Part shown: in pieces, positions 12,877 to 55,441 of the stretch | Layout of the letters: every line of letters starts with the position of its first letter | Numbering within the stretch: position 1 is the first letter of the stretch | NCBI GenBank assembly: GCA_025449115.1 | Contig: JAHLKC010000019.1 | Span: 248,001 to 312,000, forward strand | From: Chytridium lagenaria | Lineage: Eukaryota > Chytridiomycota > Chytridiomycetes > Chytridiales > Chytridiaceae | Reading direction: 5' to 3' | Length of the DNA stretch: 64,000 bases | Program-made: the position numbers and the translations under genes | The notes under the pieces: generated by a model | The model's database searches: none | What the model saw: only the letters and a program-made list of their open reading frames with translations | Told to the model about the DNA's origin: nothing

Positions 12877-15800
12877 TCATTTACCCTCCGCAACATGCAC
12901 ACCATTCCAATCTGCCGGGGGCGGATTTACCAGATAATTTCTGCATCTCTGCACCAAAGTCTTACTCGGCCCATCATCCGCAACCCTAATAGCTGTCTCA
13001 AAGATATCTATAGCCTCCTTGAAGAATTTCTTCCGGTACTTTGACAGTCCCTGTCGGAACAGATGAGCGCCTTCAAGGACTTTTTCTGGAAGTGGATCGC
13101 CCTTTCTCCCAAGAAGTTCGAAAATGGCGACCTTGTTGGATTTTCCGGTGACGATGACTTGGTCGACTTCTCTTGTGACAAATTGGTCATGAGTTTCTAG
13201 AAGGGTGTGCTCGGTGATGAGGATTGTGACGGGCGTAATGTTTGGTAAGGCCTTCAATACGGGAGGCGAGATTGACGGCGTCTCCGATGCATGAGAATTC
13301 CATGCGTTTTGTTGACCCAATGTTTCCGGAAAGAACCTATATGTGCCATGCAATGATGTGTTAGCACTTTTTCTTTTCACGTAATTGAATATGTGTTTGT
13401 TCTAACCATTCCCGTGTTGACTCCGATTCCAATCTTGATCTCTTTTAGGCCACTTTTTGCCCTGTGCTCGTTAAAGATACCAACGCTATCTTTCATTCGA
13501 AGCGCGGCATTGCAAGCATGTATAGAATCATCCGGATTCACGAAAGGAACCCCAAAGACAGCCATAACAGCATCTCCAATATATTTATCGAGTATACCTA
13601 AATGACTATAAATATCTGGTCTATAGAGGGTCTTCTTACCCTGCTCGGCAAGAATAGCATTGACAGCATCACTAAGTGGTGGTTCAGAAGTTCGACGACT
13701 TCATGGGGCTCCATGGACTCAGAAAGGGTAGTGAAGGAACGAATGTCGGAGAAAAGAATAGCGACTTTTTTCCTTTTTCCACCCAGCTGACCGCCATCTT
13801 CCGCCATCACCTGCTTCGCAAGTGCAGGAGACATATATCTGAAAAAGATTATGAGAAAGCCTTCTCAATATAACGTGCCCTACCTCCCAAGAGTCATCAG
13901 AGCTCTCTTTTCCGAACTAATATCTTCCAGCACAATAACAACACCCGTACTCGCGTAGGTATTCGTATCCTTATAACTCTTCCCGGAACTACTATCCCGA
14001 TCGCCAATTCGGTCGTCATCTGCACAATAGTGTAGTTTACGTTTCGCACTTTCCCATCAAGGCTCAATTCATAATCCTGCGCAATGATAGTTCCTCCCGG
14101 TGTATTAAACGCGCGATCAATGTCAGACACGAATGTAGCGTTCTCGGGACCTAACCATTTCGCGTAATGGCTTGTTTTCATTTCTTCTAACATGGCCTCC
14201 ATTTCCATTTTGGAGGGATGGTTGATGTGACTAAGGTGGCCGTCGCCATCGAGGGTGAGGACGACGTTGGTGATGGATTGGAGAATCATAGATAGGTAGG
14301 TTTTTACTTGAGAGGTTTCACGAAGAGTGTCTTCAGTTTTCTTAAAAAGGTATGATTTTTCAATAGCGACGGCAGCTAATCTAGTGTTAGCGGTAAATGC
14401 CAAAACTGGACATACCTTGTGCAGAGAAAGAACTGAGAATTTTCTCGTCTTCCGCACCAAAAGCTCCCTTCTTACGATTAATCATTTGGGTAACGCCAAT
14501 TGCCTCTCCGCTAATATTTTTTTATGGGCATACACAGTATGTTGCGGGTGATATACCCTGTCTGTCGGTCAACTTCGGGGTTGAACCTCGAGTCTTTGTA
14601 CGCGTCATGAATATTCACAGAGTCTGCGGAAAGAGTAATTGTTAGTAAAAAGGGGTGTTTTGAACAATCCAAAAAACGCACTCCCAGACGTAAATACAAA
14701 TCCAGCAATTCCAGAATTCACGGGGATCCTGATTTCTTGGATTATATCACGACCTTGAATATGTGCACGAAGTTGCTTTGCTTGCGGATCAAACAAGAAG
14801 AGTGTACAGCGATCTGCTGACAGAAGCTCCTTTGCCGCGTCCATGATCATCTTCACGAGGAGATCCAGCTCCAGCGTTGATCCCAATGACCGTGTCGTCT
14901 CTAGTAGCACTTCCACCTTCTTCTGCGTTTTCTTCATAGTGTCATACATCTGAGCATTGTTGATGATAATTCCCGCCTGCTTGCATAGCGTTTTCAGTAA
15001 AAACTCATCCTCATGGTTGAAAGGTTGAAGAACTCCATTTTGCCCAATCTTGTTTACAGCCTCGATAACACCTTTCAAAGTATTATCACGTGTCTTGATC
15101 GGGAAGCATATAATCGAATGAGGTATGACATCAGAAGCACCCCTTGTATCAACGTCTGCATCAAAATGTTCGTTGTTGACAGCATCCCTGATGTTCACAG
15201 GCTCGTCACGTTGGGCGACCCAACCAGCGATTCCAGCTCCTGGCGGATATCTCATGTCTGACAACAACTCCTTCTCTTTTGCATCTAAAGTGGGATCGTA
15301 ATCGCAACGACGAGCTCTCCAGTGTCCGGATCGATCAAGTACATTATAATAAGCTCGCAACTGAGAATACGAGCAGCTTCGTTGGCAATACTGTCCATTG
15401 CATCATCCAGCTCAATATCTAAGGATATACAAGAACTGACGGTCAAAAGTCTATCCACCTTCTCAAACAAGAAAAGAAGATGTTTAATGATCTCAGCTCT
15501 CGTAGTTTTGTCCATCTTTTCCATCTGATTAATAAATCTCGGGTCAAAGTACTTTTGCAGCAAGCCCATAATTAAGTTATCCTCATTGCTTGGCATCATG
15601 CCGAATCCTGTGAACTGATGTCCGTATGCAGCATGTGAGGTGATGTAGGAGGATTTTCGGTCTACCCTCTCAGCGACTGAGGGATCACCGTCACTCGGTG
15701 CTAGCGACGCTAATGATGTAGCACTTCCAAGCGAAGAAGTTCTGTAAAGGTTATTCTTCGAATTCGATCGTGACTGAGAAAGGTGGGTCTTCTTGTTTCT

Positions 15801-17202
15801 TGCGGAAAGCTTGTTTGACTGACGGTTTCCATGGTCGCTAGTATATGCGTGTTGGTTGCGATTATGATACTCTGGATATGTTAGATTCATGTCTTAATCA
15901 ATCAAACCTTTTGATATACAACCCATTGAATTCAGTATTATGGGTATACCGTTGTGTCTGAAAATTGAAGTGACCGCCAATGCTAAACGGTAAGTTACAG
16001 ATTAAATTTAAGCTTACGGTTATCTTCCGCCAATAGCTGAAGTAGCTGACATGCCTGCATTTGAACTTCAATGTTGTCGCTCAGACGACACATTAATGCC
16101 AGAAGAATTGTTACCGCGCCATGATCGTAAAGTGCGGTTATACCGTGAGTTTCTGAGATATAGTTTAACATTTTTAAGTAAAGGATAATAGGCAAAAAGA
16201 TACTGACTGTTTTCATCGGCAAGAAGGATTAGAGCATTTAGAGCATCCAGCGTTTGCTCATTAGTGCATTCAGGATCCGTTAATGTACAAAGATGTGTGT
16301 CGATCATGGCAAGATCCGAAACATGGAAGATCTTTCTCCCTGGAAGCTTTAACGATCTTTCTCCGGCATGGTCCTCCACGTCAATCCTAGCAACGGTATA
16401 TCCACTATCTTTCTGTGGTGTGCTAAACAAAAGCAGCGGGTCATTATTCCGTTCCTCAGTGACAATGCCTTCCACAGTATGAGATCTTTTATGGCCGTTT
16501 GCTGACTTTGGGCGGAGAAGATTTGAGACGTCAGTAGCTTTGACAGCATTTCGAGAAGTGGTGTAGTGGTTTTTCGAATAAAATCCGGAGAAGTGTGCGC
16601 CAATTGGATGGTTTGAGGTTAAATTGGCGGAGAAATGGGCTTGTGGTTTGGTATGCTGGCTTGCTTTTGAGGCTGCTTCCATTAAATTGAAAGCATTATG
16701 TACCGCGGAAGATATTCCATCTTCCTTAAAGCAGATACAAGATTCACAGATATCGGCGACGCTATTAACGCGGGTTCTTTATACGCAGTATGCATATCTT
16801 TACTGCCTCGCCGAGGAGACGCACTTTTTGGCCTTATCGTTTGAGAGAACCCAGTGGCATGTAATTGCGATGGTATTTCTACGATCTTTCCTTTCGCCGA
16901 ATTAGCCGCAGCAGGATTTGTGGTGAACTTTTGCATGTAAAGCTTCGAGTTCTTCTCGTTGATCGCATTGCGGCTTTTATTTTCTGAACTGCTGGGCTCG
17001 CTGATGGTGGGATGCCTGAATTTTGCGTACCACGAGGGATGCTTTGAAGTTGAAGCCCTGACGTTTCCCTTGCCGTTGCAGGCCTCGTGCGTGACGTCCC
17101 CGGCATGGCAGACCTCGCCCGTGGTTTAAGCATTTGCTCAATCCATGTGGTGTCATTGGCTGAAGGGCCCGATCCGGCCGATGCCCCTCTCCCTGACGCC
17201 AT
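12877..17202 (-). CDS. ARM-GAF-GAF-PAS class III adenylate/guanylate cyclase
   Basis: Soluble class III nucleotidyl cyclase, making cAMP or cGMP. From ATG 17202: a Pro/Ser/Arg-rich N-terminus; armadillo-like repeats ([46 protein letters not shown]); GAF 1 ([40 protein letters not shown]); GAF 2 ([32 protein letters not shown]); a PAS-like segment ([20 protein letters not shown]); and the catalytic domain with [14 protein letters not shown] (metal Asp), [14 protein letters not shown] (Lys, second metal Asp) and [16 protein letters not shown] (Asn...Arg). Introns near 16210, 16015 and 15885 join the ARM part to the GAF part in phase. Ser before C-IGD fits cAMP-type class IIIb enzymes better than cGMP (Cys), but specificity is unproven. 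Frameshifts lie at 13231-13233 and near 14020, with a possible third near 16990. Confidence 0.85.
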
Positions 17203-52073: not shown

Positions 52074-53830
52074 ATGCAACACTCAATAAACCTGAACGAT
52101 GCGCACCCAACGAAACGACTCACGATCACGGAACTATGCAGGATTCCAGTATCCGAGTCATTGGTTGCACCGTTGTTGAGGTCGACGGTGCTTGTGTTTA
52201 GGATGTGGATTGGGATTGTGGGTGTTCTTGTTGCGTTGCAGATGGTTGTCATGAGGGTGCCGTATCGGCATCTGTTGAGGATGTCGAAAGAGGATGTAGT
52301 GGGGTTGGGGAATGTGTATCAAAGTGAGTGGAAAGATTGATGGATGTGGGTGTATTTACTTTGGTGATTTTAGTTGCGGCGTCGGCGTTTGCTGTTGGTA
52401 TGATGGTGGCATATCGGAAATGTAGGTGGTTTGATGTTGCTGGTTAAAAAAAGGGGTATTTTGCTCATTGCTTTTGTAGATAAAAACGATACGCGGAATA
52501 ATCATAAAACCATTGGGGTGATGATTTTATTCCTCAACCTCATGTATTTCATCACAAGTAATTCACCTTACTTTATCATTTCCATGAAACGAAAACCCTC
52601 TAAAAACAATTTTAATCTAGACTCCCTCATCATAACACGCTCCGTCCCTATTCTCTTTGACGCCCGCTCCTCCATCCTCATCCACCCCGTCCGCACCACA
52701 ACCCATCTCCTCTCCCATCCCATCCAAATCTACATTCTCTCTGCCCTCCAAAAACTCTCAAACGAAACCTCCACGTCAAAGTTCCCTGTTTTAAGTCTAT
52801 GGGTTCTAAGGTCTGGGTGTAGTTTGATTCAGATCGCGGCGCTGGTGACGAGAGGACCTGTGGGACGGTGGTTGACGCTGGGAGGGAGCGTGGCGTCTGT
52901 GGGAATGGTTTTGGTGGGATGGGAGAGGATGCAGAGGGTGGAGGGGTTGGAAGGAGTGGTGATTTTGGGTGGTTGGGTTGGAGAGATTGTTGTTTGGGGT
53001 AAGCATCGTGGGCGAGCGTATTTTGATAAAGGGCCAGACGTTTATTGTGTTTTCTTTTTTAGAGTTGAATAGGTCTGGATTGATACGATTCGGTACGACA
53101 GAAACAGCTGTATCTATCATAGATGCTATCACCATCCTCTCTTTCAGCCTCCTCGCTCTCTACCATCACCTCATACATAAACCAAAGGTACCAGTCCCCT
53201 CTCCGCAAGCCAACACTAACCTCCCTTTAAGCCACGTAAAGTCACCATCCGACCTGCCACCGTCATTGCCGTCGATATCCCAGTTCTGCGGACCCAGGAC
53301 CGGTATTCGCGAACTGATCTTGTGCAGGAATTTGAGGAGGAGATGATGGAACTTGCGGGACGATATGGGCTTGAGCGGCGTTTGGGAGAGGTGGAGGTCG
53401 GGGTGTGGTTTTTTTCGGTGGATGGGAGAACGGTGGGGATGGCGGCTGATCAGGTAGGGCGAGGGGTTGAGTTCGCAAGAGGTAAGATATATTGTTCTAT
53501 GGTTTCATCCCGTTTATTTTTGTTTCTGATGGTTTACTTTGAAGATGTTGCCGATACTGCGCGGCTCCTTCGCGCAGAGTCTAACGATGATCGATTTTTC
53601 GTTCGGATTGGAATTGATATTGGTAAGCTTTTCATCTAGGTCCTTCATTTGTCTGGTATACCTTTTAACCATTTATTCTGTTAGGTTGCCTCGAGTTTAT
53701 GCGGAAAGGAGATCCGTCCGATGACGTTCTCATGCTCTCAGAGACTTTGGATGCGGTGCGTGAGCTTTGCCACGATGCAGCTCCTATGGGATTCCTGCTG
53801 TCTCCAGTATCTCGCTCCTCATTAAACTAA
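52074..53830 (+). CDS. Rhodopsin-like membrane domain fused to a degenerate class III cyclase-like domain
   Basis: Seven exons (52074-52323, 52374-52421, 52480-52998, 53063-53187, 53232-53481, 53545-53622, 53685-53830) join in phase at GT-AG introns into 471 residues. About eight hydrophobic helices: RMWIGIVGVLVALQMVVM, ASAFAVGMMVAY, IGVMILFLNLMYFIT, THLLSHPIQIYILSAL, LWVLRSGCSLIQIAALV, LTLGGSVASVGMVLVGW, VVILGGWVGEIVVW and AVSIIDAITILSFSLLAL. Helix 4 keeps the Arg...Pro spacing of bacteriorhodopsin helix C (R171, P180 as R82, P91) but has Thr174 at Asp85. The last helix keeps Asp293 (as D212) but has Ile297 at the Lys216 site. Residues about 318-471 follow class III cyclase order (ATVIAVDIP, GRYGLERRLGEVEVGVWFF, FFVRIGIDIG) without key catalytic residues. 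N-terminal extra helix plus rhodopsin plus cyclase matches fungal rhodopsin-guanylyl cyclases; retinal binding and activity look lost. Confidence 0.6.
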
Positions 53831-53985: not shown

Positions 53986-55441
53986 ATGGTCTGGACATCC
54001 ACTATCACCCGCACAACGGCCACCATCGGCCTCCGTCTCTCCTCCACCATCTCCAAAGCCCAAGGCATCACCGACGGCTTCATCGGCGCAATCGGCAATA
54101 CCCCTTTACTCCGTCTCCGCAAGATCAGCGAGGAAACCGGATGCGAGATCTTTGGGAAAGCCGAATTCATGAACCCCGGTGGATCCGTCAAGGACCGGGC
54201 GGCATTGTATGTTGTAAAGGATGCGGAGGAACGAGGACTCATTCAAAAAGGCGGAACGGTTGTGGAGGGGACCGCAGGGAATACGGGGATTGGATTGGCG
54301 CATGTGTGTAGAGCAAAGGGATATAAATGCGTGATGTGAGTGAATTCGTTGCGGAGATCATCATGACGGTTTCCTGACCTACGTTATAGTTATATGCCTA
54401 ATACCCAGAGTCAGGAAAAGATTGATTTGTTGAGGAGCTTGGGTGCTGATGTGAGACCTGTAGCTGCTGTTCCTTTCACCGACCCGGCCAACTACAACCA
54501 CCAAGCCAAGGAATACGCTGCATCCATCTCCAACGCCGTCTGGACCAACCAATTTGACAACGTACGTGAAGTTGCCTATTCTCAACTTTTCATGATTCCT
54601 CCTATTACTTTCATTGACCATCTTGTCCTCATCTCCTAAAAGACGGCCAACCGTCGCGCACACATTGAAACAACTGGTCCCGAGATTTGGAACCAGACGA
54701 ACGGCAACCTCGACGCTTTCACCGCCGCCTCCGGCACCGGCGGTACAGCAGCCGGCGTCACGCGCTACCTCAAAGACATCTCCCAAGGTCGCGTCAAGAG
54801 TTTCCTCGCCGATCCTCCAGGTTCCGTCCTCTACGCCTATAAAAAGACGGGCCAACTCGAGCGTACCGGCACCGGTTCCATAACAGAAGGGATTGGACAG
54901 GGCCGGATCACTGATAACATGAAAAACGATATTGATATTATGGATGATGCGGTTCATGTGACGGATGAGGAGAGCATTACGATGGTGTATCGGTTGTTGG
55001 ATGAAGAGGGTTTGTTTGTGGGGGCTTCGTCGGCTTTGAATGTGGCGGCTGCTGTGCAAGTGGCGAAGATTTTGGGACCAGGGAAGAGGGTTGTTACTAT
55101 TATTTGTGATGGAGCTGTAAGTTTACTCGAAACTTCTTCGTTAATAGCTTTACTTTGGTCGTTCGTTTTTCATCTTGGCGACCATATTAAACCATTTCAA
55201 AACATTCTAATATTTTTTTCCCCGGTCTTATTAATGTTTTTAGTATCGATACCAATCTCGCTTGTTCAGTCGTAAGTGGTTGGAGAGTAAAGGACTTCTC
55301 GATGCTATTCCTCAGCATTTGCACAAGGTAAAAAAACTATCTTTTTTTCAGTTATGTCGACTTCTCTGCCTTTCCCTTTTTTTTCACCCTTTCTTTCACG
55401 TGCACTCACTCAACTTTTCGCAGTACATCACCCTTCCGTAG
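53986..55441 (+). CDS. Cysteine synthase (O-acetylserine sulfhydrylase), fungal mitochondrial type
   Basis: PLP enzyme of the fold II family that makes cysteine from O-acetylserine and sulfide. Seen: a presequence-like N-terminus ([20 protein letters not shown]), then [19 protein letters not shown] and [20 protein letters not shown] (Lys of SVKDR binds PLP). The substrate loop is [19 protein letters not shown], with the EGTAGNTG form of the second fungal/bacterial cysteine-synthase class rather than [28 protein letters not shown] is the PLP phosphate loop. [20 protein letters not shown] and VVTIICDGA then [18 protein letters not shown] complete it, ending KYITLP at 55441. Five exons, about 390 residues, intact frame. 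There is no CBS or haem domain, so it is not a full cystathionine beta-synthase. Confidence 0.92.

What the first reader, a model, noticed from the sequence alone, without database searches (positions are those of the whole stretch)
52074..53187. Rhodopsin-like membrane domain with no retinal-binding lysine
Seen: eight hydrophobic helices in an intact seven-exon gene. Helix 4 (residues 167-190, HPVR-TTTH-LLSHP) fits bacteriorhodopsin helix C without gaps: R171 at Arg82, P180 at Pro91, but Thr174 at Asp85. The last helix (ETAVSIIDAITILSFSL) fits helix G around D293 = Asp212, which puts Ile297 at Lys216; there is no lysine anywhere in that helix. Known: fungal rhodopsin-guanylyl cyclases have an extra N-terminal helix and, in chytrids, can work as heterodimers. 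Inference: this is a related protein that lost the chromophore site, perhaps a structural or regulatory partner of a light-sensing cyclase, or a sensor for something other than light.
Basis: partly seen in the sequence, partly recalled or inferred. Interest (0 to 1): 0.88.

Follow-up and report, generated by a model that had tools for sequence, protein, structure and literature searches.

The report
Blind, catalytically dead fungal rhodopsin-cyclase relative
A chytrid fungus carries an intact gene that descends from its light-sensing rhodopsin-cyclases but appears to have lost both the light-binding site and the enzyme's active site, so it probably does something other than sense light.

Summary
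The core observation holds. The window is from Chytridium lagenaria. Descent from the rhodopsin-guanylyl cyclases (RGCs) is well supported: the RGC membrane HMM gives 24.6 bits (0 of 6000 shuffles); helices A-C, helices F-G and the cyclase each beat 400 of 400 shuffles; a phase-1 cyclase intron is shared with 6 of 6 RGC/NeoR copies. Lost: Schiff-base Lys (Ile276), counterion (Thr153), 41 residues of coiled-coil linker region, second metal Asp, base-selecting Cys, Asn/Arg pair, last 28-29 cyclase residues. Kept: the pocket's Arg, Pro, two Trp and helix-G Asp. Lys-less opsins are known, so this is a new variant of a known kind. No orthologue turned up, function is untested, and the AF2 model that matches rhodopsin phosphodiesterase was built from RGC rows, so it is partly circular.

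The parts
52074..53830 (+). whole gene, 8 exons: 52074-52323, 52374-52421, 52480-52557, 52621-52998, 53063-53187, 53232-53481, 53545-53622, 53685-53830; 450 aa
   Evidence: spliced translation without internal stops, 7 GT-AG introns of 44-64 nt; residues 1-365 identical to NCBI protein P0001; single copy
52074..53187 (+). exons 1-5: eight-helix rhodopsin-like membrane domain, residues 1-293
   Evidence: RGC HMM 24.6 bits, 0 of 6000 shuffles reach it; helices at 31-61, 72-102, 106-131, 148-171, 179-201, 205-229, 235-255, 261-289 in the alignment-based AF2 model
   Evidence: spliced out in P0001
52692..52694 (+). codon of R150, equivalent of bacteriorhodopsin Arg82 (kept)
52701..52703 (+). codon of T153 at the counterion position (Glu in 17 of 17 RGC rows)
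53122..53124 (+). codon of D272, equivalent of bacteriorhodopsin Asp212 (kept)
53134..53136 (+). codon of I276 (ATC) at the Schiff-base lysine position (Lys in 17 of 17 RGC rows)
53188..53231 (+). intron 5, 44 nt, between membrane and cyclase domains; the RGC coiled-coil linker region is 41 residues short here
53232..53830 (+). exons 6-8: degenerate class III cyclase domain, residues 294-450
   Evidence: semi-global profile score 42.4, 0 of 400 in each of three shuffle types; local HMM score alone weak, 8 of 6000 shuffles reach it
53274..53276 (+). codon of D308, equivalent of RGC1 metal Asp379 (kept)
53403..53405 (+). codon of V351, at RGC1 metal Asp423 (lost)
53482..53544 (+). intron 6, phase 1 in the codon of D377 (VEFAR[D]VADTA), same place and phase as in the genome's RGC and NeoR genes (NFAL[D] / NFSL[D])

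Best explanation
The gene is a single-copy, fast-evolving descendant of the chytrid rhodopsin-guanylyl cyclase (RGC/NeoR) family. It kept the eight-helix domain and a remnant of the cyclase domain, but lost the retinal Schiff-base lysine, the counterion, the coiled-coil transmission helix, most catalytic residues and the C-terminal end of the cyclase. Shown by sequence: the homology and these losses. Inferred: it cannot form a covalent retinal pigment, is not a light-gated cyclase and cannot complete an RGC active site. Most likely mechanism (inferred, about 0.3): a chromophore-free membrane pseudo-receptor whose cytosolic pseudo-cyclase domain acts by binding other proteins or a ligand, in the manner proposed for Lys-less opsin-related proteins, not as a catalytic heterodimer subunit. 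The confidence below is for the identity and the losses taken with 'not a light-gated cyclase', not for the mechanism.
Against: No Pfam match and no PDB match by sequence at E up to 10. No relative apart from itself in two searches of 5.8 billion proteins, which score only candidates sharing exact words (8000 and 2770 scored). Helices D-G scored as one block are weak: 6, 20 and 18 of 400 shuffles reach the score. The local cyclase HMM score is reached by 8 of 6000 shuffles. The single-sequence AF2 model has mean pLDDT 39 and no rhodopsin fold. The better model (mean pLDDT 63.7) used RGC rows, so its fold is partly put in by hand. Codon usage did not discriminate. The one Lys-less enzyme rhodopsin tested in oocytes, AsRhoPDE, was not expressed there without the lysine, and its authors suggest misfolding (PMC8774190 passages), which speaks against a stable Lys-less protein. 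Expression of the window gene is unknown.
Confidence: 0.72

Rival explanations
1. Regulatory or inhibitory subunit of the light-sensing RGC/NeoR cyclases: it inserts beside them in the zoospore membrane and dampens or tunes them by forming dead dimers.
For: RGCs of certain chytrids work as heterodimers and a non-catalytic site regulates activity (PMC12264004 passages). Lys-bearing RGC and NeoR-like genes are in the same genome. The eight-helix domain is kept.
Against: The coiled-coil linker, described as highly conserved among the three R. globosum RGCs (PMC7655827 passages), is missing, as are the last 28-29 cyclase residues; most RGC-invariant cyclase residues are replaced.
Confidence: 0.15
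2. A recently inactivated or decaying relic: the gene was used until lately and is now drifting without function.
For: No orthologue was found in the word-limited protein searches; divergence is extreme (highest identity 22%, terminal branch about 10); the cyclase is truncated; a Lys-less relative was not expressed in oocytes.
Against: No internal stop and seven intact introns; in simulation, neutral drift without a stop is unlikely beyond about 0.08-0.1 substitutions per site, far less than the divergence seen.
Confidence: 0.2
3. A membrane protein of another family that resembles rhodopsins by chance.
For: No Pfam match; helices D-G weak as a block; the unaided AF2 model is uninformative.
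Against: Independent signals in helices A-C, helices F-G and the cyclase, in the right order, against hydropathy-preserving shuffles and real ORF segments, and an intron place and phase shared with the RGC/NeoR genes.
Confidence: 0.04
4. A light sensor that binds retinal without a covalent lysine bond.
For: Arg, Pro, two Trp and the helix-G Asp of the pocket are kept; one paper notes that the covalent bond is not strictly needed in manipulated type 1 opsins (PMC5410147 passage).
Against: The counterion and the helix-C Trp are also replaced (T153, H154); there is no working cyclase by sequence to signal to. The same passage of PMC5410147 says that in natural opsins a lysine always makes the bond.
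Confidence: 0.04

Closest known systems
Chytrid rhodopsin-guanylyl cyclases (P0008, whose residue numbers fit RGC1 of Rhizoclosmatium globosum; C. lagenaria genes on C246/C20 and C82)
   Same: eight-helix membrane domain followed by a class III cyclase domain; collinear homology; a shared phase-1 intron in the C. lagenaria genes
   Different: no Schiff-base Lys, no counterion, 41 residues of linker region missing, catalytic residues lost, last 28-29 cyclase residues missing
NeoR (neorhodopsin), the non-catalytic RGC subunit
   Same: membrane domain plus a cyclase domain lacking the NxxxR pair (PMC12264004 passages)
   Different: NeoR keeps Lys, linker and both metal Asp residues (for the Asp pair; NEO_C20 row); the window protein does not
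Opsin-related proteins / Rh-noK (haloarchaea, fungi, Guillardia)
   Same: type 1 opsin fold without the retinal lysine (PMC4915679 and PMC7714340 passages)
   Different: the passages seen describe no cyclase tail; the word cyclase occurs 0 times in the main text of PMC4915679
AsRhoPDE, a protist rhodopsin phosphodiesterase
   Same: an enzyme rhodopsin without the lysine in the last (8th) helix (PMC8774190 abstract and passages)
   Different: its effector is a phosphodiesterase, which that paper says others reported as cAMP-specific; here the effector is a degenerate cyclase

Membership tests
Rhodopsin-guanylyl cyclase (RGC) | sequence homology of the membrane domain to RGC rhodopsins | tested here: met
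Rhodopsin-guanylyl cyclase (RGC) | extra N-terminal helix, eight helices in all | tested here: met
   AF2 with RGC alignment, 8 helices; 7cj3_B aligned over residues 29-291; partly circular, as the alignment was of RGCs
Rhodopsin-guanylyl cyclase (RGC) | Schiff-base lysine in the last helix | tested here: not met
   I276 at RGC1 K306, Lys in 17 of 17 RGC rows
Rhodopsin-guanylyl cyclase (RGC) | coiled-coil linker between rhodopsin and cyclase | tested here: not met
   32 residues from the Lys site to the first metal Asp against 73 in 17 of 17 RGC rows; the 44-nt intron leaves no room for a hidden exon
Rhodopsin-guanylyl cyclase (RGC) | catalytic class III cyclase residues (two metal Asp, base Glu/Cys, Asn and Arg) | tested here: not met
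   D308 and E348 kept; V351, L418, D425 and E429 at Asp423, Cys488, Asn495 and Arg499
Rhodopsin-guanylyl cyclase (RGC) | light-triggered cGMP synthesis | not testable with these tools
   needs expression
Type 1 opsin lacking the lysine (ORP / Rh-noK) | type 1 opsin homology with the lysine replaced | tested here: met
Type 1 opsin lacking the lysine (ORP / Rh-noK) | placement within a described ORP clade | not tested
   no ORP sequences were aligned; the tree holds only RGC/NeoR rows and the window protein
NeoR | helix-G sequence of the genome's NeoR-like genes (GEMTAK in C246/C20, CEMTAK in C258; that these are NeoR-type is recalled) | tested here: not met
   IDAITI in its place

The most novel reading that the evidence does not exclude
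A fungal visual photoreceptor has been turned into a non-light membrane sensor: an RGC that shed its chromophore, its transmission coil and its catalysis, and now reports another stimulus or ligand through its pseudo-cyclase domain.
Probability: 0.2. Interest if true: 0.7.

Novelty: new variant of a known kind. Interest (0 to 1): 0.45.

Why it matters
Lys-less opsins are known, and so are non-catalytic cyclase subunits, but a rhodopsin-cyclase that has lost both halves of its function while keeping an open frame is a clean natural case for asking what an opsin fold does without retinal. It lies in a genome that also holds Lys-bearing RGC and NeoR-like genes, so comparison and interaction tests are direct.

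Tried and rejected
Pfam scan and PDB phmmer of the whole protein gave 0 matches. Two protein searches with the window protein found only its own NCBI record; they score only proteins that share exact words, so distant orthologues can be missed, and no other fungal genome was available for a DNA search. Codon-usage test: inconclusive, because the training ORFs were a mixed set. Tree: the window branch is too long to place, so which RGC or NeoR clade it came from is left open. The single-sequence AF2 model was discarded (mean pLDDT 39) and not searched. A second copy or haplotype that might give selection data was sought and not found. A role as a catalytic partner was judged unlikely on missing residues and linker. 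Searches of the genome for further Lys-less copies with the C82 and NeoR-like proteins gave 7 and 27 matches, on the known RGC/NeoR contigs C82, C246, C20 and C258, plus two weak matches (E 0.006 and 0.1) on C19 beside the cyclase hits. Five paper searches listed 15 of 28, 12 of 757, 20 of 43, 15 of 21 and 2 of 2 papers; by title or abstract start none of those listed is about a Lys-less RGC or this gene. The two papers that name Chytridium lagenaria with 'genome' were seen in the listing only.

Full report
What is there. Positions 52074-53830 (+) hold one spliced gene of eight exons and seven GT-AG introns of 44-64 nt, encoding 450 aa without an internal stop. The only protein found for it is NCBI's hypothetical protein BC829DRAFT_386242, partial, of Chytridium lagenaria, 365 aa, identical to residues 1-365 of my model, that is exons 1-5 and most of exon 6. 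The spliced form scores higher against RGCs (24.6 versus 15.1 bits) and is NCBI's form. The gene is single-copy in the assembly.

Is it a rhodopsin relative? Direct library searches say nothing: 0 Pfam families and 0 PDB sequences. The genome itself holds rhodopsin-cyclases: RGC and NeoR-like genes head to head on C246 and C20, an RGC on C82 and a second NeoR-like gene on C258. In a phmmer search of the window's membrane domain against 4843 ORFs, the top three hits from outside the window were rhodopsin exons of C246, C82 and C20, at E 0.058, 0.078 and 0.5, not significant one by one. A profile of 19 chytrid RGCs gives the membrane domain 24.6 bits; 0 of 6000 shuffles (2000 in blocks of 10, 2000 in blocks of 20, 2000 full) reach it. 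Searched with the 4843 ORFs it has E 3.7e-6, and the best hit that is neither this gene nor an RGC/NeoR exon has E 0.067. Scored apart in semi-global alignment, helices A-C (z 10.7-12.1), helices F-G (z 5.0-6.4) and the cyclase domain (z 7.5-8.5) each beat 400 of 400 shuffles in three shuffle types. Helices D-G as one block do not do well: 6, 20 and 18 of 400 reach the score. Against real ORF segments, from the window and from around cyclase genes: 0 of 475 for A-C, 0 of 2028 for F-G; for the cyclase 4 of 201 score higher, all four cyclase-profile hits. The cyclase domain's local HMM score alone is weak: 8 of 6000 shuffles reach it. hhalign of the RGC alignment against the protein is collinear across both domains (probability 82, P 1.1e-5).

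Gene structure as independent evidence. Intron 6 lies in phase 1 in the codon of D in VEFAR[D]. All 6 RGC/NeoR copies modelled have a phase-1 intron in the codon of D in NFAL[D] or NFSL[D]; they are 4 genes, two of them on both C246 and C20 (97% identical). The alignment puts these in one column for the four copies shown there. Their exon matches break at profile position 80-83; for the NeoR-like copy on C20 the next matched piece starts only at 114. Seven open frames of other cyclases run through that position unbroken, an eighth ends at position 83, and in the rest the stretch was not covered. The other six introns of the window gene match none of the RGC introns shown in place and phase. 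By a rough count of mine, a chance match between one of 7 and one of 6 introns over 1350 places is about 3%.

What was lost. The residue numbers of P0008 (named adenylyl cyclase of Rhizoclosmatium globosum) fit the RGC1 residues named in PMC12264004 (D379, E419, D423, C488; passages). Retinal site: K306->I276, E177->T153, W178->H154; kept are R174->R150, P183->P159, W274->W244, W281->W251 and D302->D272 (the match of these places to bacteriorhodopsin residues is recalled). Cyclase: D379->D308 and E419->E348 kept; D423->V351, C488->L418, N495->D425 and R499->E429 lost. From the Lys site to the first metal Asp there are 32 residues against 73 in 17 of 17 RGC rows, so 41 residues of the coiled-coil linker region are gone, and 28-29 residues at the C-terminal end of the cyclase are missing. 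In all, 29 of 115 columns that are invariant in 17 RGC rows (one gap allowed) are kept (P0005, P0009 and P0024 were dropped before that alignment as gappy or incomplete; P0017 and P0021-P0023 were never aligned).

Is it a relic? A neutral simulation (300 runs per step, substitutions only) leaves 5% of copies free of stops at 0.08 substitutions per site, 1.7% at 0.1 and 0 of 300 at 0.2. The gene is far more diverged (highest identity 22%), so it was probably constrained for most of its history; recent loss cannot be excluded. The codon-usage test was inconclusive. Against stability speaks AsRhoPDE, which was not expressed in oocytes without its lysine (PMC8774190 passages).

How it may work. 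In the RGC1/NeoR enzyme one subunit gives the base-selecting residues of the active site and the other the metal-binding ones (PMC12264004 passages); that the Asn/Arg pair lies opposite the metal Asp pair is general knowledge of class III cyclases. The window protein offers neither set complete, and it lacks the linker that the R. globosum RGCs share (PMC7655827 passages). So a catalytic partner role is unlikely, and a purely inhibitory role is possible but unsupported. I favour a chromophore-free pseudo-receptor that acts by binding, as proposed for opsin-related proteins. This is inference.

Known background. Lys-less type 1 opsins are a known and recurrent kind (PMC4915679 and PMC7714340 passages). 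A Lys-less enzyme rhodopsin, AsRhoPDE, is known (PMC8774190 abstract and passages). Among the papers listed, which are capped lists, I saw none on a Lys-less RGC. Passages of PMC8815786 were also seen.

Noticed in passing
window 12877-16900 (-): Another cyclase gene: an exon at 13380-13700 matches the RGC cyclase profile weakly (E 3.2e-4) and lies among the Pfam cyclase hits; GAF-like exons upstream by eye.
   Followed up: partly
L042 (G000:C246) and L044 (G000:C20): A head-to-head RGC/NeoR-like gene pair is present on two contigs, 97% identical over 8.5 kb with 114 gap positions; reading frames differ between copies, so these may be haplotypes or assembly errors.
   Followed up: partly
L056 (G000:C258:14696-16451, -): A second NeoR-like gene, 60-74% identical by exon to the C20 NeoR-like gene, with the lysine kept.
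   Followed up: partly
G000:C19:6766-14100 and 104257-112079: Clusters of cyclase matches on the window's own contig that look like tandem arrays.
   Followed up: no
window about 53988-55440 (+): The downstream neighbour reads as a cysteine synthase-like gene by eye from its translation.
   Followed up: no
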